Shown piece after piece: positions 1,681 to 49,075 of a stretch of DNA of 64,000 nucleotides. The notes beneath the pieces are model-generated. The model did no database searches and was not told the DNA's origin. It saw only the letters and a list, made by a program, of their open reading frames with translations. Position numbers and translations under genes: made by a program. The DNA lies in the NCBI RefSeq assembly GCF_900168015.1, contig NZ_FUYR01000004.1:62001-126000 (forward strand), given 5' to 3'. Source of the stretch: Daejeonella lutea (GTDB lineage: Bacteria; Bacteroidota; Bacteroidia; Sphingobacteriales; Sphingobacteriaceae). Numbering within the stretch: the stretch's first letter is position 1; every line of letters starts with the position of its first letter.

Positions 1681-1808
1681 AGTTGTACGTTATACGTTGT
1701 ACGTGGTACGTTGCGAGACGGAAAGACGGACTCTTAACCAGGACGTTTTACTGGGCATTTGGTACGCAGGAGGAAACTTATAACGTATAACGTACAACGT
1801 AAAACGTT
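1681..1808. repeat. Inverted pair of 7-bp-period arrays, ftsX/leuS divergent gap
   Basis: The left arm (1681-1714) repeats words such as TTATACG, TTGTACG and TGGTACG at 7-bp spacing. The right arm (1772-1808) repeats ATAACGT, ACAACGT and AAAACGT and is largely the reverse complement of the left. The spacer is about 57 bases and unrelated. The right arm ends a few bases before the probable leuS -7 element. This is one member of the array family described in the findings. Confidence 0.85.
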
Positions 1809-7463: not shown

Positions 7464-8381
7464 ATGAAAATTATATCACTCTTGCCAGCAGCCACAGAAA
7501 TCGTATGTGCCCTTGGTCTTCAAGATCAGTTGGTCGGACGCTCGCACGAATGTGATTTCCCCGAAAGCGTGAAAGAACTCCCTATCTGTTCATCTGCAAA
7601 ATTTACATCAGGGTCTGATAGCCTCGAAATTGACCGACAGGTCAAAGAAATACTTACCGACGCCTTGTCTATTTATACCATCGACAAGGAGTTGATCCGG
7701 ACACTAAATCCGGATGTTATCATTACACAGGCCCAATGCGAGGTTTGTGCGGTTAGCATAAAAGATGTTGAATCTGCACTTGAAGGCTTGTTGGATAAGG
7801 AATGCAGAATAGTTTCTTTGGAGCCTAAGGGCCTGGCAGATGTTTACACTGATATTAGTCTTATCGCTGATATTCTTGGAGTTCGGAGCGAGGCTGATCA
7901 TCTACTAGAAAGATCGAATGAGCGACTGGATATAATCCGGCACAAGCTAAAATTTATTACAGAAAAGCCAAAAGTTGCCTGCATTGAATGGCTTGCTCCT
8001 TTGATGGTGGCAGGCAATTGGACTCCCGAGCTCGTTGATATTGCCGGGGGTAACGCAATATTGGCCTTAAATGGCCACCATTCTCCCTTTGTTGATTTTC
8101 AGGAGATCGTTCAGGAAGATCCGGATATTATAGTTGTTATGCCCTGCGGATTTTCTATACAGAGAACACTGCAAGAGATTAATCTATTGTTGCAGCTCCC
8201 CGGGTGGGAAGAACTTAAAGCTGTTAAGAATAACCGGATATATATCGCAGATGGCAACCAATATTTTAATCGCTCAGGTCCCAGGTTAACAGACAGTATT
8301 GAAATTCTAGCTGAGATAATTAACCCAAAACAGTTTGTTTTCGGTTATGAAGGCACTGGCTGGGTTAAATTTGGGATATAA
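7464..8381 (+). CDS. BtuF/helical-backbone metal-receptor type substrate-binding protein (cobalamin-binding-like)
   Basis: This 305-residue protein belongs to the periplasmic-binding-protein fold with a helical backbone used for cobalamin, haem or siderophores. It opens with MKIISLLPAATEIVCALG, the usual start of BtuF-like proteins lacking a signal peptide, followed by VGRSHECD, by PDVIITQAQCEVCAV near residue 90, and by a second lobe with VACIEWLAPLMVAGNW and PDIIVVMPCGF. The start at 7464 is chosen because the in-frame extension to 7398 runs through a terminator and a promoter. With no visible export signal, it may act in the cytoplasm or on a nearby process rather than with an ABC importer; no importer genes are adjacent. 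The ligand is inferred only. Confidence 0.8.
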   Translation: MKIISLLPAATEIVCALGLQDQLVGRSHECDFPESVKELPICSSAKFTSGSDSLEIDRQVKEILTDALSIYTIDKELIRTLNPDVIITQAQCEVCAVSIKDVESALEGLLDKECRIVSLEPKGLADVYTDISLIADILGVRSEADHLLERSNERLDIIRHKLKFITEKPKVACIEWLAPLMVAGNWTPELVDIAGGNAILALNGHHSPFVDFQEIVQEDPDIIVVMPCGFSIQRTLQEINLLLQLPGWEELKAVKNNRIYIADGNQYFNRSGPRLTDSIEILAEIINPKQFVFGYEGTGWVKFGI

Positions 8382-8399
8382 GTGATTGTAAGACCTCAG

Positions 8400-8921
8400 C
8401 TAAAAGGAGATAAACTGATCAATTTGCTGATTTGTGAACCTGATGGTATCCTCTTTAAACAAATTTCCATGGTCATCCAATTCTTTATGAATAGCAGGAA
8501 TGTGGATCCGCAGCGGGAGGACATGCATATTGATATAGTGGCAAATACCCGTAAAATGATCAACACCGCGAATGTTGCCATACTTACCTGAGGATAATCC
8601 TACAAGGGCAGCCTTCTTACCATAAAAGCTTTCCGGGAATTTGCAGGCATCAATGAATGTTTTAAGAATGCCGGGGAAGCCACCGTTGTATTCAGGAAAT
8701 ATAAACAGAAATTTGCTGGTGAATGTCACTTTATCCTGGATTGGCTGGAAGGCTTCGCTCCGCTGTCCGTACAGATCTGTGCCGATTAAATGATGCGGCA
8801 AATCGGTAAGCGAAAGCAGGTCTGCTTCGTATCCTTTCGACAAAATTTGTCTCTGATAATATGCAGCCAGCTTCAGCGTATAACTTCCTTCCCGGTTTGT
8901 GCCTGAGACAATAGTGATCAT
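8400..8921 (-). CDS. NADPH-dependent FMN reductase family protein
   Basis: This is a 173-residue flavodoxin-like protein. The N-terminal MITIVSGTNREGSYT is the typical phosphate-binding loop of NAD(P)H-dependent FMN reductases (GTNREGSxT), and the mid-region FIFPEYNGGFPGILKTFID matches the family's PEYNGxxPGxLK motif. Such enzymes reduce FMN, quinones or azo compounds with NAD(P)H. I chose the ATG at 8921 because the family starts right at the first beta-strand; an upstream ATG at 8942 would add seven residues. It is convergent with the BtuF-like gene and has no obvious partner. Confidence 0.88.
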   Translation of the reverse strand: MITIVSGTNREGSYTLKLAAYYQRQILSKGYEADLLSLTDLPHHLIGTDLYGQRSEAFQPIQDKVTFTSKFLFIFPEYNGGFPGILKTFIDACKFPESFYGKKAALVGLSSGKYGNIRGVDHFTGICHYINMHVLPLRIHIPAIHKELDDHGNLFKEDTIRFTNQQIDQFISF

Positions 8922-9097
8922 TTTTGTTGATAAGATGTGCAAAACGAAAATCGCCCCGCCGGTTAAATAGTTTTAAGTTTGTTATCTTTAGTCCTTGGTA
9001 AAATGCCATCCAGACATATCAAAAGTATTGTTTTTTACTGCGATACCGCTATAAAGAGATATACTTAATATCAGTTATTTGTAAATATTTTCTAGAA

Positions 9098-21412: not shown

Positions 21413-21565
21413 GACGTTATACGTTTTACGTTGTACGTTTTACGTTGAGTTATACGTAACACGTTCTACGCGATGAGTTAATAAGTTCTATGTGATACGT
21501 GTACGTTGTGTATAGGTCATGCAATAGGCGATTTGACGTACAACTTACAACGTACAACGTATAAC
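21413..21565. repeat. Long inverted heptamer array between DUF4295 and ftsY
   Basis: Starting two bases from the ftsY ATG, words such as TTATACG, TTTTACG, TTGTACG and TTTTACG run at 7-bp spacing. A degenerate middle follows, then ACGTACA, ACTTACA, ACGTACA and ACGTATA as the inverse arm. At about 150 bp it is among the longest arrays. It lies between a terminator and the ftsY start, so it would form most of any ftsY leader RNA. Confidence 0.85.
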
Positions 21566-22054: not shown

Positions 22055-22066
22055 TGTACTTTGATG

Positions 22067-22140
22067 TTTTACGTTCTACGTCCTACGTTCTACGTCTGGG
22101 TGCGCTTGCACGTACAACGTATAACGTAATACGTATAACT
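22067..22140. repeat. Inverted heptamer array between rpmB and rpmG
   Basis: The left arm repeats TTTTACG, TTCTACG, TCCTACG and TTCTACG; the right arm repeats AACGTAT, AACGTAA, TACGTAT and AACTTAT. The loop is TCTGGGTGCGCTTGC. The right arm touches the rpmB stop codon at 22140, and the left arm ends 12 bases before the rpmG start. Confidence 0.88.
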
Positions 22141-22373
22141 TATATATACCCTTTTTTAAGGAACTTATTAATTACGGCTGTAATGCCATTTTTGCTGATG
22201 GTTTTGATCGCTGAAGTTGAAACTTTCAACGTGATCCATCTATCTTCTTCTGGAATGTAAAACTTTTTTACATGCAGGTTAGGGTAAAACTTACGTTTAG
22301 TTTTTACGTTCGAATTAGAAACGTTAAAACCGTTCATCGCCATTTTCCCGGTTAAATCACAAATTCTCGACAT
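22140..22373 (-). CDS. rpmB: 50S ribosomal protein L28
   Basis: This large-subunit protein has 77 residues, starting MSRICDLTGKMAMNGFNVS with the typical L28 N-terminus (xCxxTGK) and a basic KTKRKFYPNLH stretch in the middle. It is the first gene of the minus-strand run rpmB-rpmG-DUF4295-ftsY-rimO-bshC-ldh. The stop codon adjoins an inverted heptamer array. Confidence 0.95.
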   Translation of the reverse strand: MSRICDLTGKMAMNGFNVSNSNVKTKRKFYPNLHVKKFYIPEEDRWITLKVSTSAIKTISKNGITAVINKFLKKGYI

Positions 22374-26465: not shown

Positions 26466-27596
26466 ATGAAATACTACCTCATTGCCGGAGAAGCGTCCGG
26501 AGACCTTCATGGTTCCAATCTTATGAAAGCCCTCAAAGTGGAAGATCCTGGTGCGGAATTTCGTTTCTTCGGGGGCGATTTGATGAATGCTGAAGGAGGG
26601 GTTCTGGCCAAACATTACTCTGAAATGGCCTTTATGGGGTTTGTTGAGGTTGTTGCTAATCTTAATACCATCTTTAAAAATATCAAGAAGGCGAAGGCTG
26701 ATATTCTCGCATTTAAGCCCGATGTGATCATACTAATTGACTTCCCGGGCTTTAATATGAAAATCGCACAGTTTGCGAAGGTTGAAAATATTAAGGTATT
26801 TTATTATATCTCACCAAAGGTTTGGGCCTGGAATCAACGGCGTGTTTTAAAAATTAAAAAATACGTTGACCGGATGTTTTGTATCCTGCCTTTTGAAATA
26901 GAATTTTATAAAAGCTGGGGGATGGATGTCGACTATGTCGGAAACCCAATTCTCGATGCTATCGCAGAGAACGAGCCTGACGATCAGTTCAAGATCACCC
27001 ACGATCTTGACGTGAGGCCCCTGATCGCGCTTTTGCCTGGTAGCAGAAAACAGGAACTGGACAGGGTTCTGCCAGAGATGGTTAAAACGGCAGACTTGTT
27101 TCCTGAATACCAGTTTGTAATTGCAGGCGCGCCAACATTTAAAGCGGAGGATTACCTGCCCTATCTGGATGGCCGGCAAATCCCTGTAGTATTTAACGCT
27201 ACTTACAATCTCGTCCGGAATTCAAAGGCTGCGGTAGTAACATCAGGTACAGCTACACTTGAAACTGCTTTGCTGAAAACTCCTCAGATCGTTGTATATA
27301 AAGGAAATCCTGTTTCCATTGCTATAGCCCGCGTTGTTGTTAATATCAAGTTTATATCTCTTGTAAATCTGGTGATGAACGATAGCGTTGTGAAAGAACT
27401 AATCCAGGAAGATTGTAACAGTAAAACCATCGCGCAAGAGCTGGATCTTATATTACATGACCAGCTATACCGGACTGGCATGCTAATAAATTATGATGAG
27501 CTTGCTGAGAAAATGGGTGGACCCGGAGCTTCGCAGAGGGCGGCAGCCTTGATGGTTGAGTATCTCCGCCGCTACCCGGTAATCGGTAGTCATTAA
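26466..27596 (+). CDS. lpxB: Lipid-A-disaccharide synthase
   Basis: LpxB, a family GT19 glycosyltransferase, joins lipid X and UDP-diacylglucosamine to make the lipid A disaccharide at the inner membrane. The 376-residue protein opens with MKYYLIAGEASGDLHGSNL, the family's GEASGD motif at residues 7-12. It then has MGFVEVVANL, the IDFPGFNMKIA block near 96, YYISPKVWAWNQRR near 118, LLPGSRKQEL near 190 and SGTATLETALL near 257. The last codons (PVIGSH) lie inside a heptamer array that continues after the stop. Confidence 0.95.
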   Translation: MKYYLIAGEASGDLHGSNLMKALKVEDPGAEFRFFGGDLMNAEGGVLAKHYSEMAFMGFVEVVANLNTIFKNIKKAKADILAFKPDVIILIDFPGFNMKIAQFAKVENIKVFYYISPKVWAWNQRRVLKIKKYVDRMFCILPFEIEFYKSWGMDVDYVGNPILDAIAENEPDDQFKITHDLDVRPLIALLPGSRKQELDRVLPEMVKTADLFPEYQFVIAGAPTFKAEDYLPYLDGRQIPVVFNATYNLVRNSKAAVVTSGTATLETALLKTPQIVVYKGNPVSIAIARVVVNIKFISLVNLVMNDSVVKELIQEDCNSKTIAQELDLILHDQLYRTGMLINYDELAEKMGGPGASQRAAALMVEYLRRYPVIGSH

Positions 27597-27695
27597 TCAG
27601 TAATCAGTAATCGGGAAATCAGTACGGCGGGTAGTAATAAGTGTTAGATAATCAGTAACCGTCGGGTTAGACGATGCCATTGAATACTGATTACC
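27578..27695. repeat. Heptamer array overlapping the lpxB stop codon
   Basis: GTAATCG, GTAGTCA, TTAATCA, GTAATCA and GTAATCG run at 7-bp spacing from within the last lpxB codons across the stop, followed by scattered copies. ACTGATTACC near 27685 is the inverse word. The same word family appears far away at 48869-49000. Confidence 0.8.
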
Positions 27696-36753: not shown

Positions 36754-37482
36754 ATGGTTATTCTAGTTTTTTTCCTTTGTCACTGGTTCCTTTCCTTATT
36801 TTTTCAAACATTTTTCCTTCATAGATACGCTTCCCATAAAATGTTCAAAATGGAACCTTTCTGGGAGAAAACATTTTATTTGATGACCTTCCTTTCCCAA
36901 GGCTCATCTTTTCTGAATCCACGCGCTTATGCGATAATGCACAGGATGCACCATGCATACAGCGATACTGAAAAGGACCCGCACTCACCTCACTTCATAA
37001 AAGATGTTTGGGGACTGATGATCAAGACGAAGAACATCTACCTGGAATATGTGAAGTTTAAGGTAGAGCCTGAACCAGCTTTTCGCGACAGGTACCCAAC
37101 CTGGTCCTTGATCGACCGTATCGGCGACCTTTGGATTACACGTTCGGTGTTCATCGCAATTTATATTGCATTTTATATTTATTTCGCCGAATACTGGTGG
37201 ATGTTCCTCTTGTTGCCTATCCACTTTTTAATGGGACCAATTCATGGCGCTATTGTTAACTGGTGCGGCCATAAATATGGTTACTCAAACCATGATAATG
37301 ACGATCATAGTAAGAACAGCCTTCCTTTGGATTTCCTGATGATGGGTGAGCTATTCCAGAACAATCACCACAAAAGCCCTAACAACGTTAATTTCGCTAA
37401 CAGATGGTTTGAGTTTGACCCGTCTTATCCGATCATTAAGTTGATGCACCTTCTGAGGATCATTAGGTTGAGGAAGGTGTAG
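36754..37482 (+). CDS. Fatty acid desaturase (acyl-CoA delta-9 desaturase type)
   Basis: This 242-residue membrane di-iron enzyme introduces a double bond in acyl chains. The three histidine boxes are present: HRYASH at residues 23-28, HRMHH at 63-67 and NNHH at 203-206; a further GHKYGYSNHDNDDH patch lies near 170. Hydrophobic helices occur at about 1-20, 45-60, 130-150 and 150-165. At 242 residues it is shorter than typical OLE1-like enzymes but usual for Bacteroidota. The heptamer array that flanks the four-helix-bundle gene starts at its stop codon. Confidence 0.92.
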   Translation: MVILVFFLCHWFLSLFFQTFFLHRYASHKMFKMEPFWEKTFYLMTFLSQGSSFLNPRAYAIMHRMHHAYSDTEKDPHSPHFIKDVWGLMIKTKNIYLEYVKFKVEPEPAFRDRYPTWSLIDRIGDLWITRSVFIAIYIAFYIYFAEYWWMFLLLPIHFLMGPIHGAIVNWCGHKYGYSNHDNDDHSKNSLPLDFLMMGELFQNNHHKSPNNVNFANRWFEFDPSYPIIKLMHLLRIIRLRKV

Positions 37483-37547
37483 GAGGCAGGAACCATGAAG
37501 TAGGAAATAAGAAGGAAGAAGCGCGAGGTAGGAAACAGGAATGTTGA
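37481..37547. repeat. Left arm of array pair flanking the four-helix-bundle gene
   Basis: Purine-rich heptamers: CAGGAAC, CATGAAG, TAGGAAA, TAAGAAG, GAAGAAG, then TAGGAAA and CAGGAAT. It starts at the desaturase stop codon and ends 24 bases before the four-helix-bundle gene's stop. Confidence 0.8.
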
Positions 37548-37570
37548 AGCCGGGGTAGGCTGATCGACAC

Positions 37571-37927
37571 TTATTTCCAGTTAGAGTACAGCTTGAATAT
37601 CTTAGCGCCAATTTCGTTTGTTTTATTGGTGAAATCACGATATTGTTGTTCGTTGATATAATCACAATCTTTGGCGAAACTCAACCATACCCGCGTCTCC
37701 TCCAGAGACCCAATTGCATAAACCAGGAATTTTTTGAGTTCTGCTTTATAGACCCGACGGCCAAAACCTTCTGCTATATTAGCGCATATAGCTCTGGTGG
37801 ATCGAACAACTTGGCTGGTCAACGAGTACTTTTCCTCAGCAGGAAAAGACTTCGTCAACTTAAAAATGTCGATCGAAAGTTGATAGGATAGTTGGTATAT
37901 ATCGAGATCCGCAAAAGACTTAATCAT
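37571..37927 (-). CDS. Four helix bundle protein (S23 ribosomal / 23S intervening-sequence protein family)
   Basis: It has 118 residues from the ATG at 37927 (MIKSFADLDIYQLSYQ). Family landmarks are the L-x-x-Y-Q-L-S opening, LTSQVVRSTRAICANIAEGF near residue 44-63 (the very conserved RSxxxxxxNIAEGxGR region), and FLVYAIGSLEETRVWLSFA near 78. Members are encoded inside 23S rRNA intervening sequences in some bacteria, and related proteins (Avd) assist diversity-generating retroelements; no reverse transcriptase is present here. The upstream ATG at 37990 would add 21 residues not typical of the family. The gene is bracketed by inverted heptamer arms at 37481-37547 and 38011-38053. Confidence 0.9.
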   Translation of the reverse strand: MIKSFADLDIYQLSYQLSIDIFKLTKSFPAEEKYSLTSQVVRSTRAICANIAEGFGRRVYKAELKKFLVYAIGSLEETRVWLSFAKDCDYINEQQYRDFTNKTNEIGAKIFKLYSNWK

Positions 37928-38010
37928 AAGTAGTATTCTGCTGAAAGGTAGACATCCTGGTGGAATAATGGTGATCACCGAATGTTTCAATTAGTTTTCG
38001 GTATTATCCG

Positions 38011-38053
38011 GTGGCAGGATCCTGCTTCTTGCCTCATTCCTCCTGTCTCCTGC
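38011..38053. repeat. Right arm of array pair flanking the four-helix-bundle gene
   Basis: TCCTGCT, TCTTGCC, TCATTCC, TCCTGTC and TCCTGC at 7-bp spacing. Reverse-complemented it gives GCAGGA, GACAGGA and GGAATGA words like those of the left arm at 37481-37547, about 500 bases away. Confidence 0.8.
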
Positions 38054-38088
38054 AAAAAAAAAGTCGCCCCATACAGGTCGACTTTCTT
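38054..38088 (-). terminator. Terminator of the 55-aa gene
   Basis: On the minus strand AAAGTCG and CGACTTT form a stem followed by nine Ts. It also abuts the right heptamer arm. Confidence 0.88.
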
Positions 38089-38115
38089 AGTTTTAGGTAG
38101 TTGGTGTATATTGAA

Positions 38116-38283
38116 TCAGGCAGTCATTAATCTGTCCTGACGGTTGTTGTTAAAAGTTATGTGTTTAATCAGATTGATGCGTGCATTTCGGATAGCTTTA
38201 AGATCTGACATCAGAATTTCGTGTAATTGCTGATCGAATTGCTCTACTAGTTTCATTGCCTGGTTTTTAGTATTTCTTTTCAT
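38116..38283 (-). CDS. Small hypothetical protein, 55 residues
   Basis: It starts MKRNTKNQAMKLVEQFDQQL and ends NNNRQDRLMTA. It is helical and charged, with no signal peptide or membrane segment (ILMSDLKAIRNARINLIKHI in the middle). It is supported by a strong terminator 27 bases after its stop and by a second small gene 42 bases upstream on the same strand. I do not recognise a family. Confidence 0.6.
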   Translation of the reverse strand: MKRNTKNQAMKLVEQFDQQLHEILMSDLKAIRNARINLIKHITFNNNRQDRLMTA

Positions 38284-38325
38284 GATTCAGAGTTTTTAGG
38301 TTATTGTTTAGTTAGGTTATAAAGG

Positions 38326-41606: not shown

Positions 41607-43130
41607 ATGAAGAAAGCTCTCCTCCTCATATCAATGCTGATAGTACATAGCAGCATAAGCAATGCCCAGATCAGACTATCGTCGATAAACGTGAACGACT
41701 GGGTGAAGAAGAACTTCAGTGGGCAGGGTGTTGTGGTTGGCAACATAACGCACAAAGGCTACCCGCTTTCAATTCTTTCATTTACCAGTTCTCCAAATGT
41801 ACTTCAGGTACCAAAAGGCTTAATCCTTTCATCTGGGAATTCTTATAATGTCGCGGGATATAACAATTCACATAACCAGAGTTCAACATTCAGTGACGTA
41901 AGCGTTCCGGAAGTAGACAAGGATCTTTCTGCTATGATCAAAGAGAAACTATTTGACGTTTGCAGTATCGAATTCGATTTTGTGCCGATGGATAACAGTA
42001 TTCAATTTAATTATCAGTTCGGTTCAGATGAGTATCCAGAATATGTGGATTCACCATACAATGATATTTTTGCTTTCATTGTTTCAGACGAAACGGGTTC
42101 TAAGAATATTGCCCTGATCCCAACAACCAATGTCCCGGTGAGTATCAATACGGTAAACTTTAAAACGAATAAGGATCATTTTATTGATAATAATCTATAC
42201 AAGCAGGTGGTGATCAAGCGGCAGGATCCGGTTAAATCAACCTATCGGGGCACATTTCCCGGTCGCGTTTTGCGGGGAATAGCCTCCGTATTTGGGTCGC
42301 CAAATTATGCTGGTAGCGCAGATCGTGTAGTGATCGCCCCAGATCCTGAACTCTTGAAGACAATGGATCAGAATCTATACCGCAACCTGCGTTATGATGG
42401 GATCACAAAGAAGCTGGTAGCACAAATGTATGTGACGCCCTATAAGAAATGCCATCTAAAAATTGTTCTGGCCGATGTGTCAGACAATATCTACGACTCA
42501 GGAGTTTTTATCGAAGACAAAAGCCTTACGGCTAAAAAAGATCCCAGCCAGCCTGCTTTCCAGGATTATCCTGATTTGAGTAAGGTTATTGATCCGAATT
42601 TGATCCTGCAGGGTAAGAAGCTGGAAGAAATTATCCCTGATTCTTATAAAAATCAAGTTACACCGGCTATTGTGAACAATCAGCCGCTTCCGCCTTCGCC
42701 GGCAACTTCCCAGCCAGTTCCAACTACTCCGGTGCAAACAAATACAGAATCTCCAAAGCCTGCGCCGGTTAAAGCTCCGGTAAGCATTCCGGTACTGGAA
42801 AATGCCGTTATCTATTTCGATTTCGACAAATCAGATATTAAAGCTGAGGAAATGGCTAAATTGAAAGATGCCATGGCGAGATTTCAAAAGCTGAGCGAGT
42901 TTTATACTTTCCGGATCACAGGGCATACCGATAGCATCGGAAGTATGGCTTACAATGTGGAACTTTCCAAAAGAAGAAATCAATCTGTAACTGCAGCAGT
43001 CAACGATATACTTGGTATCCGAAACCTTCCTGCACAGCCTAAATCATTTACTGAACCTGCAGCCGATAATGGTACCGACAGCGGCCGGGCAGCGAACAGG
43101 AGGGTGGAAATTATTTTTACCAGAAAATAA
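41607..43130 (+). CDS. Choice-of-anchor L domain plus OmpA C-terminal domain outer membrane protein
   Basis: This 507-residue protein has a signal peptide (about 1-20). Residues about 28-300 resemble the choice-of-anchor L domain: VVVGNITHKGYPLSILSF, GLILSSGNSYNVAGYN, then FQFGSDEYPEY-type SIQFNYQFGSDEYPEYVDS and NDIFAFIVSD. A proline-rich linker (about 355-390) leads to an OmpA-like peptidoglycan-binding domain: VIYFDFDKSDIKAEEMAKL near 402, ITGHTDSIGSMAYNVELSKRR in the middle with the conserved Asp and Arg, and AANRRVEIIF at the end. It probably tethers a surface domain to the cell wall. Confidence 0.88.
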   Translation: MKKALLLISMLIVHSSISNAQIRLSSINVNDWVKKNFSGQGVVVGNITHKGYPLSILSFTSSPNVLQVPKGLILSSGNSYNVAGYNNSHNQSSTFSDVSVPEVDKDLSAMIKEKLFDVCSIEFDFVPMDNSIQFNYQFGSDEYPEYVDSPYNDIFAFIVSDETGSKNIALIPTTNVPVSINTVNFKTNKDHFIDNNLYKQVVIKRQDPVKSTYRGTFPGRVLRGIASVFGSPNYAGSADRVVIAPDPELLKTMDQNLYRNLRYDGITKKLVAQMYVTPYKKCHLKIVLADVSDNIYDSGVFIEDKSLTAKKDPSQPAFQDYPDLSKVIDPNLILQGKKLEEIIPDSYKNQVTPAIVNNQPLPPSPATSQPVPTTPVQTNTESPKPAPVKAPVSIPVLENAVIYFDFDKSDIKAEEMAKLKDAMARFQKLSEFYTFRITGHTDSIGSMAYNVELSKRRNQSVTAAVNDILGIRNLPAQPKSFTEPAADNGTDSGRAANRRVEIIFTRK

Positions 43131-43224
43131 GTTTTACGTGATACGTTTTACGTTGTAAGTTTCTAAACGCTGTGTTATGCGTTAACACGTGAACGTATAA
43201 CGTACGACGTAAAACGTACAACTC
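43131..43224. repeat. Inverted heptamer array between convergent OmpA-like and sigma-partner genes
   Basis: Left arm: TTTTACG, TGATACG, TTTTACG, TTGTAAG. Right arm: AACGTAT, AACGTAC, GACGTAA, AACGTAC, then AACTC. The loop region has ACGCTGTGTTATGCGTTAAC. The array fills the gap from one stop codon to the other. Confidence 0.88.
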
Positions 43225-44482
43225 AAGGCTTCTTAATCGAATAATTCAACTTAAACCCAACTCCGAATGATTTCAGATCCGTCTCACCCTGGCCGATACC
43301 CGTTAAAGGCAACTTGGCATATGGCTGGATGACAAGGCTCACCTGATTGGATAAGGGATGTTCTAATGCAAGGCCAAGATTAACTACACTCAGGAGATGT
43401 TTATTCTCATTACGGATTGTATACTCCCGGCGCCCGGTTGGGAAAGCAGGCGAGGGTGCATTGTAAATGAAATCGTATTTTTCAGAAAGCATAATATAAG
43501 ACGACATACCAGCCGTTGCATAAATCTTATTCACGGCTTTACTACTCACCATCAAGTTTATGTTTAGGGGTATGTCTAATACACGACAGTCAGCGTCTAT
43601 TTGTCTGGAATAACTGGTCCAGGTGGCAAATGGCTTTTCTATAGTCTTATATGACATCTTATCCGCAGAGTAGAGCTTCTTCGAATAATAAATCCCCGTG
43701 CCTGCACTCATACGCTTTCCCAGCCTGTAACTGACGCCTATTCCCATACTCAATCCGAGATCACCCTTCTCTATTCCTTTAACGGAATTTACGTCAGGGG
43801 ATAATGCGAGGCTTAAAGCCCACCTCCCGGTGGGAAAGGAAGTAGGTCTGAATACAGGCTTTTCGGAGTTTTCCGGTCCATTAGTAAGGCCATCTGAAGG
43901 TTTTGATATTTCTGTAGCAGACTGACTTGAAACTGTGCTTGTAATACTGGGATTGATTCCCGCAAATTCTGCAGCGATTTCATGTGGATGCAAGAGTCGC
44001 GAAGCAGGGGGAAGATTGTTTCTTAACGTGAATTTTGCAATACCTAGCTTCTGAGATGTACCCAGATCCAGGGAGTTTGCTGAGTTCTGAGTTTTAGTGT
44101 TTTTAAATTCAGCGAGAGTTTCTTTCGAAGGGTCGGTAATGTCAGTAATGGGCTTGGATGAAGCTTCAGTATTTGTGGGATCCGCTGAATTGACAGTTGA
44201 GTTCGTGATTTTTCCAGCATTCTTCCCCACATTCTTAACTGATTGCGGCTCAGAAATTTCTTTATCATTCATTGTCGGTGCGAGCCATAATGAAAGAAAA
44301 ATAAGCAAAGCTGCGGCAATACCCGAAAGGGGATAGATCCAGGCGGCAGTCTTTCTTTTCGATCCCTTCCTCAACAGACGTTCCATTTCGTTCCAATTCT
44401 TCTCCGAAGCCTTAAACTCCGGAGGAGAATTAAGTGCCTGCCTGAAGAAATTGTCGGTATGGTTTTGATTCGTATTGTTCAT
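43223..44482 (-). CDS. Anti-sigma-like N-terminus with C-terminal beta-barrel-like domain
   Basis: This 419-residue protein is encoded right after an ECF sigma factor. The N-terminus (about 1-40) is cytoplasmic and polar, with FRQALNSPPEFKASEKNWNEM-type repeats, and may bind the sigma factor. One membrane helix lies at about 45-66 (GIAAALLIFLSLWLAP). A Ser/Thr/Asn-rich linker (about 70-200) follows, and the C-terminal 200 residues have alternating strands like PorT/outer membrane beta-barrel proteins (GIGVSYRLGKRMSAGTGIYY). Its start lies 53 bases inside the sigma gene in another frame. Direct membrane-to-outer-membrane signalling is inferred. Confidence 0.7.
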   Translation of the reverse strand: MNNTNQNHTDNFFRQALNSPPEFKASEKNWNEMERLLRKGSKRKTAAWIYPLSGIAAALLIFLSLWLAPTMNDKEISEPQSVKNVGKNAGKITNSTVNSADPTNTEASSKPITDITDPSKETLAEFKNTKTQNSANSLDLGTSQKLGIAKFTLRNNLPPASRLLHPHEIAAEFAGINPSITSTVSSQSATEISKPSDGLTNGPENSEKPVFRPTSFPTGRWALSLALSPDVNSVKGIEKGDLGLSMGIGVSYRLGKRMSAGTGIYYSKKLYSADKMSYKTIEKPFATWTSYSRQIDADCRVLDIPLNINLMVSSKAVNKIYATAGMSSYIMLSEKYDFIYNAPSPAFPTGRREYTIRNENKHLLSVVNLGLALEHPLSNQVSLVIQPYAKLPLTGIGQGETDLKSFGVGFKLNYSIKKP

Positions 44483-48868: not shown

Positions 48869-49075
48869 CTGTTATCAGTAGCTAGTAACCAGTAATCGGT
48901 AATCAGTGGTCAGTAATCGGTTATCAGTAATCAGTGATCAGGGCAAATCGGTTATCTAGACACCGTGTTATAGTAAGGTAGTACTCGATACTGATTACCT
49001 AGCCCCTACTCTCCACTCTCCACTCTCCACTCTCCACTCTCAACTCTCAACCGTCAACCGTCAACTGTCAACCGT
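48869..49075. repeat. Compound heptamer arrays between msrA and the lipoprotein gene
   Basis: Two word families lie side by side. The first (48869-48957) repeats CAGTAAT, CGGTAAT, CAGTGGT and CAGTAAT, with an inverse ACTGATTACC near 48989. The second (49007-49074) repeats CTCTCCA four times, then CTCTCAA, CCGTCAA and CTGTCAA. Both keep exact 7-bp spacing over most of their length. The second ends at the lipoprotein stop codon. Confidence 0.88.

What the first reader, a model, noticed from the sequence alone, without database searches (positions are those of the whole stretch)
37481..38053. Four-helix-bundle (S23/IVP) gene bracketed by inverted heptamer arms
The only array pair with a gene between the arms encloses a S23/intervening-sequence family protein. 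In Leptospira and Coxiella, family members lie inside 23S rRNA insertions flanked by complementary ends, and the related Avd protein helps a retroelement. The unit arm-gene-arm here looks like a fuller version of the arm-loop-arm arrays elsewhere. This raises the idea that the S23-type protein helps spread or maintain the arrays, like RAYT transposases with REP elements. That link is inference.
Basis: partly seen in the sequence, partly recalled or inferred. Interest (0 to 1): 0.75.

Follow-up and report, generated by a model that had tools for sequence, protein, structure and literature searches.

The report
Heptamer-armed S23 genes: a wandering element
A small gene of unknown function, best known from inserts in ribosomal RNA genes, turns out in several groups of bacteria to sit often between two inverted runs of seven-base repeats, as a small unit that is gained, lost, flipped and apparently now and then moved, which gives the gene and the puzzling repeats a shared, testable origin.

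Summary
The window carries an S23/23S_rRNA_IVP gene (37571-37927, -) between degenerate seven-base runs. Alone this is weak: the flanks' inverted match is equalled by 58 of 300 shuffles. The class behind it is strong. In this genome 9 of 11 S23 genes lie between inverted arms, against 0 of 347 other genes; so do 21/26 pseudomonadotal and 18/24 patescibacterial loci (outer controls 2/26 and 0/24), with period 7 predominating. Arms differ between elements, match within one, and change together at one site (0/20000 re-pairings). Sites are seen filled, empty, as arm-only relics, decayed and inverted; one element recurs at two unrelated sites with similarity ending at the arms. The protein is under purifying selection. 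Gene-less arrays track S23 number and share the genome's own S23 heptamers. Best reading: a mobile-like element, of which S23-bearing rRNA intervening sequences would be a special case. That S23 does the moving is inferred; no movement was observed, and whether arms or gene come first at a site is open.

The parts
37571..37927 (-). S23 / 23S_rRNA_IVP gene, 118 aa, four-helix-bundle family
   Evidence: PF05635 118.8 bits; bAvd PF22296 30.5 bits, below its cut-off of 40; profile of the genome's nine intact S23 proteins matches PDB 2rld (4e-36) and 2gsc (1.2e-25)
38013..38053 (-). 5' arm in the sense of the gene: degenerate heptamers (CAGGAGA CAGGAGG AATGAGG CAAGAAG CAGGATC)
   Evidence: read; period-7 score of this flank 8.5; weak on its own
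37928..38012 (-). leader between 5' arm and start codon
   Evidence: read; the leaders of two related elements, L318 and L320, align with each other between arm and gene; no Rfam match
37481..37560 (-). 3' arm in the sense of the gene: degenerate heptamers, starting at the stop codon of the neighbouring desaturase-like gene
   Evidence: TRF 37500-37559, period 28; period-7 score 9.0
36754..37482 (+). flanking desaturase-like gene (name from recall, not searched), convergent with the S23 gene; marks the site used for the empty-site comparison
   Evidence: ORF; orthologues at 84-91% identity in 12 relatives and 77% in G011; of these 13, 12 show no array in the stretch after the stop codon and G013 shows a gene-less array
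1682..1807 (.). gene-less inverted arm-loop-arm array (1682-1711 / 1775-1807), ACGT-type heptamers as in elements C8a and C4b
21414..21565 (.). gene-less inverted arm-loop-arm array (21414-21446 / 21536-21565)
22060..22144 (.). gene-less inverted arm-loop-arm array (22060-22095 / 22110-22144)
43127..43225 (.). gene-less inverted arm-loop-arm array (43127-43162 / about 43190-43225)
   Evidence: for the left arm; right arm read by eye
27569..27690 (.). gene-less GTAATCA array, heptamer as in S23 element C10b of the same genome
   Evidence: an attempted match of its loop to the C10b leader fell on the array part instead
48877..49075 (.). two gene-less period-7 arrays side by side (GTAATCA type 48877-48941, ACTCTCC type 49008-49075), not complementary to each other

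Best explanation
The window shows one worn copy of a small, mobile-like element: inverted heptamer arm, short leader, S23 gene, inverted heptamer arm. Shown by comparison: in several phyla many S23 genes lie between such arms; the arms differ from element to element, match within an element and change in concert; the unit is present or absent at orthologous sites, decays, leaves arm-only relics, is found flipped at one site, and in one clear case occurs at two unrelated sites with similarity ending at the arms; the protein is kept by selection; it lies mostly between genes pointing the same way, in their direction, close to the upstream stop and the downstream start. Inferred: the S23 protein (a relative forms a five-subunit ring, PMC4990558 introduction) binds folded heptamer runs and helps the host's replication or repair machinery copy the unit, its gene-less derivatives and the two arms against each other; template switching at a hairpin would make the arms converge. 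Sense orientation and arms flush with stop and start would make the insertion tolerable to the host. S23-bearing 23S rRNA intervening sequences would be the special case in which the landing site is an rRNA helix tip.
For: Arms around S23 genes against controls. Own genome: 9/11 with inverted SW>=20 vs 0/347 other genes (at >=18: 9/11 vs 6/347). Genus, 8 own loci included: 29/36 SW>=18 vs 4/532 random places. 80 named genomes, 71 loci with full flanks: 39/71 SW>=20 vs 13/474 random places; with genes as controls 33/70 vs 28/416. Phylum of a Gracilibacteria genome (taken as Patescibacteria): 18/24 SW>=18 vs 0/24 outer control and 3.8% of mismatched flanks. Phylum of Thiohalocapsa (taken as Pseudomonadota): 21/26 vs 2/26 outer control and 13.4% of mismatched flanks. 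Eight genomes of several phyla, some loci shared with the named set: 20/22 vs 8/68 mismatched. Viral contigs 24/30, some of them near-duplicates, no control run. Cyanobacterial plasmids: clear in 5 of 8 fetched, of 44 matching plasmid records. Period: 35 of 71 loci with period 7 vs 7 with period 8 and none with 4-6 or 9-12; 19 of 26 vs none; 13 of 24 vs 2 at period 9. Matched arms: left vs reverse-complemented right heptamer >=6/7 in 34/46 elements with two scorable arms (of 139), vs 6.3% for mismatched elements and 5/46 in direct orientation. Concerted change at one site, 14 genomes: mean 24.9 vs 15.2, 0/20000 re-pairings. Absence and relics; decay; flip; two-site copy. Orientation: 110 sense vs 6 antisense between co-directional neighbours. 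Flushness: 41 of 48 left arms within -15 to +13 nt of the upstream stop. dN/dS median 0.11: 34 pairs chosen at protein identity >=0.8, and 25 usable of 189 same-site pairs without that filter, range 0.02-0.55. Gene-less arrays: density vs S23 count rho 0.57, p 0.005, other periods -0.14, 22 genomes; 37 of 40 arrays match the genome's own S23 arm heptamers, vs 44% for sets from other genomes (0/1000) and 71% for the genus (21/1000).
Against: No movement was observed, only comparisons. Most close pairs in the genus are copies at the same site; only one clear near-identical pair at unrelated sites was found (L318/L320, 90% protein identity), with more distant ones besides. At the window's own site the closest relative has a gene-less array with another heptamer. 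Across different sites, protein similarity predicts heptamer similarity only weakly (Mantel r 0.067, 190/2000 permutations), so a specific protein-heptamer match is not shown. At the one site tested for concerted change, the own partner is best in both row and column for only 4 of 14. Four S23-rich genomes (G122, G084, G299, G114) had no array in 60 kb each. In the named genomes 37 of 70 S23 genes do not reach SW>=20. The window's copy is an exception in orientation and in arm strength. S23 has no catalytic site that I know of (recall); the copying step is guesswork. Loci are the best-scoring S23 matches, and those were picked by conserved peptides, so they are not random samples.
Confidence: 0.53

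Rival explanations
1. The arrays are made and spread by something else (slippage plus template switching, or another enzyme) and act as safe landing places; the S23 gene is cargo that repeatedly enters array loops.
For: At the window's own site the closest relative G013 has a strong gene-less array with another heptamer (period-7 score 25.5). At the tRNA/prs site gene-less arrays with other heptamers lie, within the 620 nt shown, where relatives hold S23 (L416, L428, L429, L431). L177 and L180 share arms at one site but hold different S23 types. At sites with a shared neighbour and protein identity above 0.5, heptamers agree more often than at different sites (e.g. 21.6% of 74 vs 7.3% of 300), which may be shared descent or a site effect.
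Against: Arrays are nearly absent where S23 is absent or single: mean 0.22 per 100 kb over 10 genomes. In the L318/L320 pair, arms, leader and gene align as one unit. Gene-less arrays use the heptamers of the genome's own S23 arms. At shared-neighbour sites with protein identity 0.40-0.50 the heptamers agree in only 5.3% of 94 pairs, about as at different sites (4.0% of 1269).
Confidence: 0.24
2. An RNA-level element, as in rRNA: the arms pair in the transcript, bring the flanking stop and start codons together and are cut by RNase III; selection acts on the RNA stem.
For: Sense orientation between genes and arms flush with stop and start. Published RNase III excision of the Coxiella element, with heptamers at the cleavage end (PMC4990558, section 16 and discussion). 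The window unit folds better than all 100 shuffles, z -3.5.
Against: If pairing in the sense RNA were kept by selection, G.U pairs should exceed A.C mismatches; in 175 elements they are fewer (408 vs 524, GU share 0.438, vs 0.489 in mismatched controls). None of 20 pseudomonadotal loci scanned overlaps an Rfam family at its gathering score. Many arms are too imperfect for a long stem.
Confidence: 0.13
3. The element needs a reverse transcriptase (like Avd in diversity-generating retroelements) or a Y1 transposase (like REP/RAYT) supplied in trans.
For: S23 is related to Avd: bAvd matches in 6 of 9 proteins, one above the cut-off. PF05635 was the commonest family in a survey of such loci, taken there as resembling Avd (PMC10053308, passage).
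Against: RVT_1 matches in only 3 of 20 genus genomes, none in G004, G005 and G014, which hold 8-10 S23 matches. Y1_Tnp absent from this genome and from G002, G007, G008, G016 and G017, all with S23. Some of these genomes are incomplete, other RT profiles were not tried, and past presence cannot be excluded.
Confidence: 0.05
4. For this window instance alone: no element, just a single S23 gene beside chance purine-rich repeats.
For: Inverted score 13, equalled by 58/300 shuffles.
Against: In 12 of 13 relatives with the orthologous neighbour the stretch after its stop codon has no array, and in the closest one it has an array of another heptamer. The related elements L318/L320, with a similar protein start, have clear arms of related purine-rich heptamers. 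The family pattern is strong.
Confidence: 0.05

Closest known systems
23S rRNA intervening sequences with an S23 reading frame (Leptospira, Coxiella, Xanthomonas as listed in PMC4990558; PF05635)
   Same: Same protein family; gene enclosed by complementary ends; in Coxiella three tandem heptamers upstream of the gene, with copy number varying between strains (PMC4990558, section 16); sporadic presence; gene decay.
   Different: The copies read here lie between protein or tRNA genes; 20 loci scanned, none in an Rfam family. Up to 15 or more per genome; tandem heptamers on both sides; different heptamers per element; gene-less derivatives.
Heptamer repeats of Xanthomonas and Nostoc (GGGAATC, GGGGA(C/T)T; PMC4692102, abstract and passages)
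   Different: That paper reads them as G-quadruplexes; the terms S23, intervening and four helix do not occur in its main text. Here the heptamers are mostly not G-rich and are tied to S23 genes.
TAACTGA repeats of Beggiatoaceae, cyanobacteria and Bacteroidetes (PMC4679880, abstract, passages and section 12)
   Same: Intergenic heptamer direct repeats between genes, absent from close relatives at the same site in some cases, linked there to gene rearrangement.
   Different: Described as direct repeats of one heptamer and as putative regulator sites; the terms S23, 23S and four helix do not occur in its main text.
REP elements and RAYT transposases
   Same: Works alike at most: hairpin elements in gene gaps and a small gene that may act on them.
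   Different: S23 is not a Y1 transposase; Y1_Tnp is absent from this genome; units are 7-base tandem runs, not single palindromes (REP features from recall).
Avd of diversity-generating retroelements
   Same: Related four-helix-bundle protein (bAvd matches).
   Different: No template/variable repeat was looked for here; no RVT_1 match in 17 of 20 genus genomes.

Membership tests
PF05635 23S_rRNA_IVP protein family | profile match above the curated cut-off | tested here: met
   118.8 bits vs 33.8
23S rRNA intervening sequence (IVS) | located inside an rRNA gene (helix 9, 25 or 45) | tested here: not met
   window 37300-38300 has no Rfam match up to E 1; neighbours are protein genes
23S rRNA intervening sequence (IVS) | complementary ends enclosing the insert | tested here: inconclusive
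   weak for the window copy (58/300 shuffles), strong for the class (9/11 vs 0/347)
23S rRNA intervening sequence (IVS) | excision from the transcript by RNase III | not testable with these tools
   needs RNA data; the sequence test for sense-RNA pairing went against it
REP/RAYT system | Y1 (HUH) transposase in the genome | tested here: not met
   no Y1_Tnp match in G000
Diversity-generating retroelement | reverse transcriptase beside the Avd-like gene | tested here: not met
   the one RVT_1 match in G000 is on contig C10 at 8371-9093, while the window is on C5; none in 17 of 20 genus genomes
Mobile element (general) | filled and empty orthologous sites | tested here: met
   window site without array in 12 of 13 relatives, with a gene-less array in the closest; thiolase site a plain 40-bp gap in G001 and filled in 14 genomes
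Mobile element (general) | near-identical copy at an unrelated site with sharp ends | tested here: met
   one clear pair, L318/L320, similarity ends at the arms
Mobile element (general) | observed transposition | not testable with these tools
   needs an experiment

The most novel reading that the evidence does not exclude
S23 proteins are the dedicated factors of a pan-bacterial class of mobile elements without a conventional transposase: inverted tandem-heptamer arms, moved and kept matched by hairpin-templated copying, that produced the previously unconnected heptamer repeats of Bacteroidota, cyanobacteria and Xanthomonas and, by landing in rRNA helices, the S23-bearing 23S intervening sequences.
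Probability: 0.35. Interest if true: 0.95.

Novelty: new variant of a known kind. Interest (0 to 1): 0.85.

Why it matters
PF05635 matches were found in 232 of 296 genomes sampled from this genome's phylum (taken to be Bacteroidota), in 70 of 116 from the phylum of a Gracilibacteria genome (many near 1 Mb) and in 44 of 249 from the phylum of Thiohalocapsa, yet no function for the family was found in the papers read here. Separate papers describe heptamer repeats as quadruplexes, as regulator sites or as an oddity of one rRNA insert. If the link made here is right, all three are parts or products of one element, and the function of S23 becomes directly testable (does it bind its own heptamers, does its loss freeze the arrays). 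It would also warn against reading S23 genes beside cas genes or in other operons as partners of those systems (two cyanobacterial plasmid copies sit between cas genes). No paper joining S23 genes outside rRNA to heptamer arms was seen in the listings of ten searches of the open-access library; several of those searches listed only the top rows, and subscription papers and preprints are not covered.

Tried and rejected
Sense-RNA stem as the selected feature: tested by the balance of G.U pairs against A.C mismatches; the result went the other way. Specific protein-heptamer match across unrelated sites: weak (Mantel 190/2000). Leader of element C10b in the loop of the gene-less array at 27.6 kb: a match was seen by eye, but the best alignment (3/500 shuffles) fell on the array, not the leader; dropped. 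Reverse transcriptase or Y1 transposase as the required partner: not supported. Known RNA family in the element: none. First alignment A1 was too diverse for the named-genome scan; a narrower one (A2, 4 of 9 proteins) was used. Loci from the genome search are in contig orientation; because of that, one search showed the wrong side of the desaturase-like gene for loci on the minus strand, and an early reading of one S23 gene as antisense was wrong. The orientation counts were made after correction, and the window site was re-read, which brought out the array in G013. For that I moved the best explanation from 0.55 to 0.53 and the cargo rival from 0.22 to 0.24. By eye all 11 own-genome genes seemed armed; the automated count is 9 of 11, and the misses are the window copy and a decayed copy. 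Rows dropped before counts: 9 of 80 named loci with short flanks; 8 of 30, 5 of 29 and 3 of 29 loci cut by contig ends; L091 for a broken frame; elements under the arm-score limits; 12 of 139 elements without both neighbours; 164 of 189 same-site pairs too short, too close or saturated; 9 of 19 pdxJ-site loci whose gap could not be read. In one search six loci were cut by contig ends but counted, so some of their flanks are misplaced. S23 counts are capped by the 15 candidates scored per genome, so the counts used can be too low. Labels such as desaturase, thiolase, ahcY, pdxJ, prs and valS come from reading translations and recall, not from a search.
Full report
OBSERVATION. The window (G000:C5:62001-126000 of an unnamed 4.03 Mb genome; taken to be a Bacteroidota genome from its relatives, an inference) holds a 118-residue S23/IVP gene at 37571-37927 on the minus strand (PF05635, 118.8 bits; relatives of known structure 2rld and 2gsc). 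On either side lie degenerate purine-rich runs with a seven-base step, one starting at the stop codon of a desaturase-like gene (37482), the other ending near 38053. Tandem Repeats Finder sees the first. On its own this is weak: the inverted match of the flanks is equalled by 58 of 300 shuffles. Heptamer arrays in the window as a whole are not chance: 13 at score 12 or more against none in shuffles, and 0-1 with six other periods.

ENRICHMENT. The genome has 11 S23 matches. I compared the flanks of each with those of other genes. Nine of 11 show an inverted match of score 20 or more, against 0 of 347 other genes (at 18 or more: 9 of 11 against 6 of 347); the two that miss are the window copy and a decayed copy. 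In the genus, own loci included, 29 of 36 pass score 18, against 4 of 532 random places. In 80 named genomes, mostly Bacteroidota by title but also Clostridia, Ignavibacteriae, Betaproteobacteria, Thiohalocapsa, Planctomycetes and Gracilibacteria, 39 of 71 loci with full flanks pass score 20, against 13 of 474 random places, and 33 of 70 against 28 of 416 with genes as controls. Among best-scoring loci from the phylum of a Gracilibacteria genome it is 18 of 24 at score 18, against 0 of 24 further out and 3.8% of mismatched flanks; from the phylum of Thiohalocapsa 21 of 26, against 2 of 26 and 13.4%; from eight genomes of several phyla, partly the same loci as in the named set, 20 of 22 against 8 of 68 mismatched; from viral contigs, some of them near-duplicates, 24 of 30, without a control. 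Five of eight cyanobacterial plasmid copies fetched (of 44 matching records) have clear arms. The period is mostly 7: among 26 loci, 19 have a strong period-7 run and none has a run of period 4-6 or 8-12; among 71 named loci 35 have period 7, 7 have period 8 and none has 4-6 or 9-12; among 24, 13 have period 7 and 2 period 9.

ARMS. Elements differ in their heptamers. The left arm agrees with the reverse complement of the right arm at 6 of 7 positions or better in 34 of the 46 elements (of 139) with two scorable arms, against 6.3% when elements are mismatched and 5 of 46 in direct orientation. In one gap (between a fatty-acid oxidation gene and a thiolase gene, names inferred from the translations) 14 genus genomes hold an S23 gene; within-element complementarity averages 24.9, between genomes 15.2, and none of 20000 re-pairings reaches the observed sum, although the own partner is the best in row and column for only 4 of 14. 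The two arms of one element therefore change together. Across different sites protein similarity hardly predicts the heptamer, so heptamers change fast.

GAIN, LOSS, FLIP, MOVE. At the window's site 13 relatives have the orthologous neighbour at 77-91% identity. Twelve show no array in the stretch after its stop codon (400 nt, 327 in one; period-7 score 8.0 or less), and the closest, G013, shows a strong array of another heptamer (score 25.5) and no S23 gene in the part read. At the thiolase site the S23-free genome G001 has a plain 40-bp gap and G000 a 68-bp gap with a heptamer remnant but no gene; G008 has a decayed gene and decayed arms (L182). Between ahcY-like and pdxJ-like genes (10 of 19 loci readable) G014 holds an element, G019 a decayed one, G000 and G013 an arm-and-leader remnant, and G018 none. 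Upstream of a tRNA and a prs-like gene G005 and G014 hold the related element in opposite orientations: the gene interior aligns only on opposite strands (score 289 against 13), both flanks only on the same strand, and the element is 91% identical in reverse. The G014 copy has stop codons inside. G015 has a gene-less array with other heptamers there, and G012, for one, nothing in the 620 nt shown. Elements L318 (G014) and L320 (G005) have 90% identical proteins, unrelated outer flanks, and DNA similarity that starts in the left arm and ends in the right arm. Most other close pairs are copies at one site.

PLACEMENT. Of 139 elements, 127 have both neighbours assigned: 110 lie between two genes of their own direction, 6 between two of the opposite direction, 11 elsewhere. 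Among the named genomes alone it is 62 of 69. Ordinary adjacent genes share a strand in 247 of 367 cases. The left arm begins within -15 to +13 nt of the upstream stop codon in 41 of 48, and the right arm ends within -2 to +11 nt of the next start in 32 of 55. The window copy is an exception, convergent with the desaturase-like gene. These counts include related sites and simple ORF calls, so they are neither fully independent nor exact.

SELECTION AND GENE-LESS ARRAYS. Pairs of S23 genes in the genus have a median dN/dS of 0.11, both in 34 pairs chosen at protein identity 0.8 or more (15 independent ones 0.02-0.24) and in the 25 usable of 189 same-site pairs taken without that filter (0.02-0.55, lowest protein identity 0.38), so the protein is used. 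In 22 genomes sampled at 60-200 kb, array density rises with S23 number (rho 0.57, p 0.005) and other periods do not; ten genomes with 0 or 1 S23 average 0.22 arrays per 100 kb, twelve with 6 or more average 2.9, although four of these had none. Of 40 gene-less arrays in the stretches read from this genome (arms of a pair counted singly) 37 match a heptamer of its own S23 arms, against 44% for equal sets from other genomes and 71% for the genus.

MECHANISM. Shown: the unit, its presence and absence, the matched arms, the selected protein. Inferred: S23 acts on folded heptamer arms, and host copying with template switching spreads and equalises them. A partner reverse transcriptase (RVT_1) or Y1 transposase is lacking in several S23-holding genomes of the genus. 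Pairing in the sense RNA does not look like what selection keeps: G.U pairs are fewer than A.C mismatches (408 vs 524; share 0.438, control 0.489), which leans to a DNA-level process or to the other strand; the effect is small and the elements are partly related. Whether arms or gene arrive first at a site is not settled; the array in G013 and those at the tRNA site fit either order.

COMPARISON. The Coxiella 23S insert, called a selfish element by its authors, carries three tandem heptamers before its S23 frame, with strain-variable number, and is cut there by RNase III (PMC4990558, abstract, introduction, section 16, discussion). Xanthomonas and Nostoc heptamers prefer gaps between aligned genes and places near stop codons, and those of Xanthomonas often come as inverted pairs (PMC4692102, abstract and passages). 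Heptamer repeats in some Bacteroidetes are absent from relatives at the same site (PMC4679880, section 12). None of these three texts, as far as read or searched here, joins S23 genes outside rRNA to heptamer arms. The window gene is a member of the PF05635 family; the unit is not an rRNA intervening sequence, since it is not in rRNA, but it may well work like one.

VERDICT. I rate the finding high because it ties together three unexplained things and makes the role of a widespread protein testable.

Noticed in passing
L128 (G013:C9, after the desaturase-like stop codon): At the window's own site the closest relative has a GAAAACT-type heptamer run flush with the stop codon and no S23 gene in the part read.
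   Followed up: partly
L174 15318-15343 (G000:C10, near 255.3 kb): A TATCAAG heptamer run lies in frame inside a valyl-tRNA synthetase-like gene (reads ...LYYIKYQVSGSNLPAG...), apparently an array sitting in a protein loop (gene name from recall).
   Followed up: partly
L091 3600-4420: Two S23 elements in tandem in a genome labelled Clostridia: the first gene is cut short by a second copy of arm, leader and gene start.
   Followed up: partly
L318 and L320 leaders; L396, L400, L401, L407, L410, L417, L419: A terminator-like hairpin before the S23 start codon resembles the terminator of the upstream ahcY-like gene in a relative (L400) and looks worn in copies at the tRNA site, as if the element had carried a host terminator along (read by eye).
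   Followed up: partly
L437, L442: S23 elements between cas6 and cas4, and between cas10/cmr2 and cmr3, on cyanobacterial plasmids; strong arms in L437, weaker in L442.
   Followed up: no
L324: Leader-like sequence present twice, with a short array of opposite sense just before the start codon, so that the left arm could pair with either of two partners (read by eye).
   Followed up: no
L084, L087, L089, L093, L126: Some S23 genes are flanked by period-8 rather than period-7 runs.
   Followed up: no
L335, L336: The stretch before these S23 genes looks like the tail of a small SRP-type RNA (from recall of its sequence).
   Followed up: no
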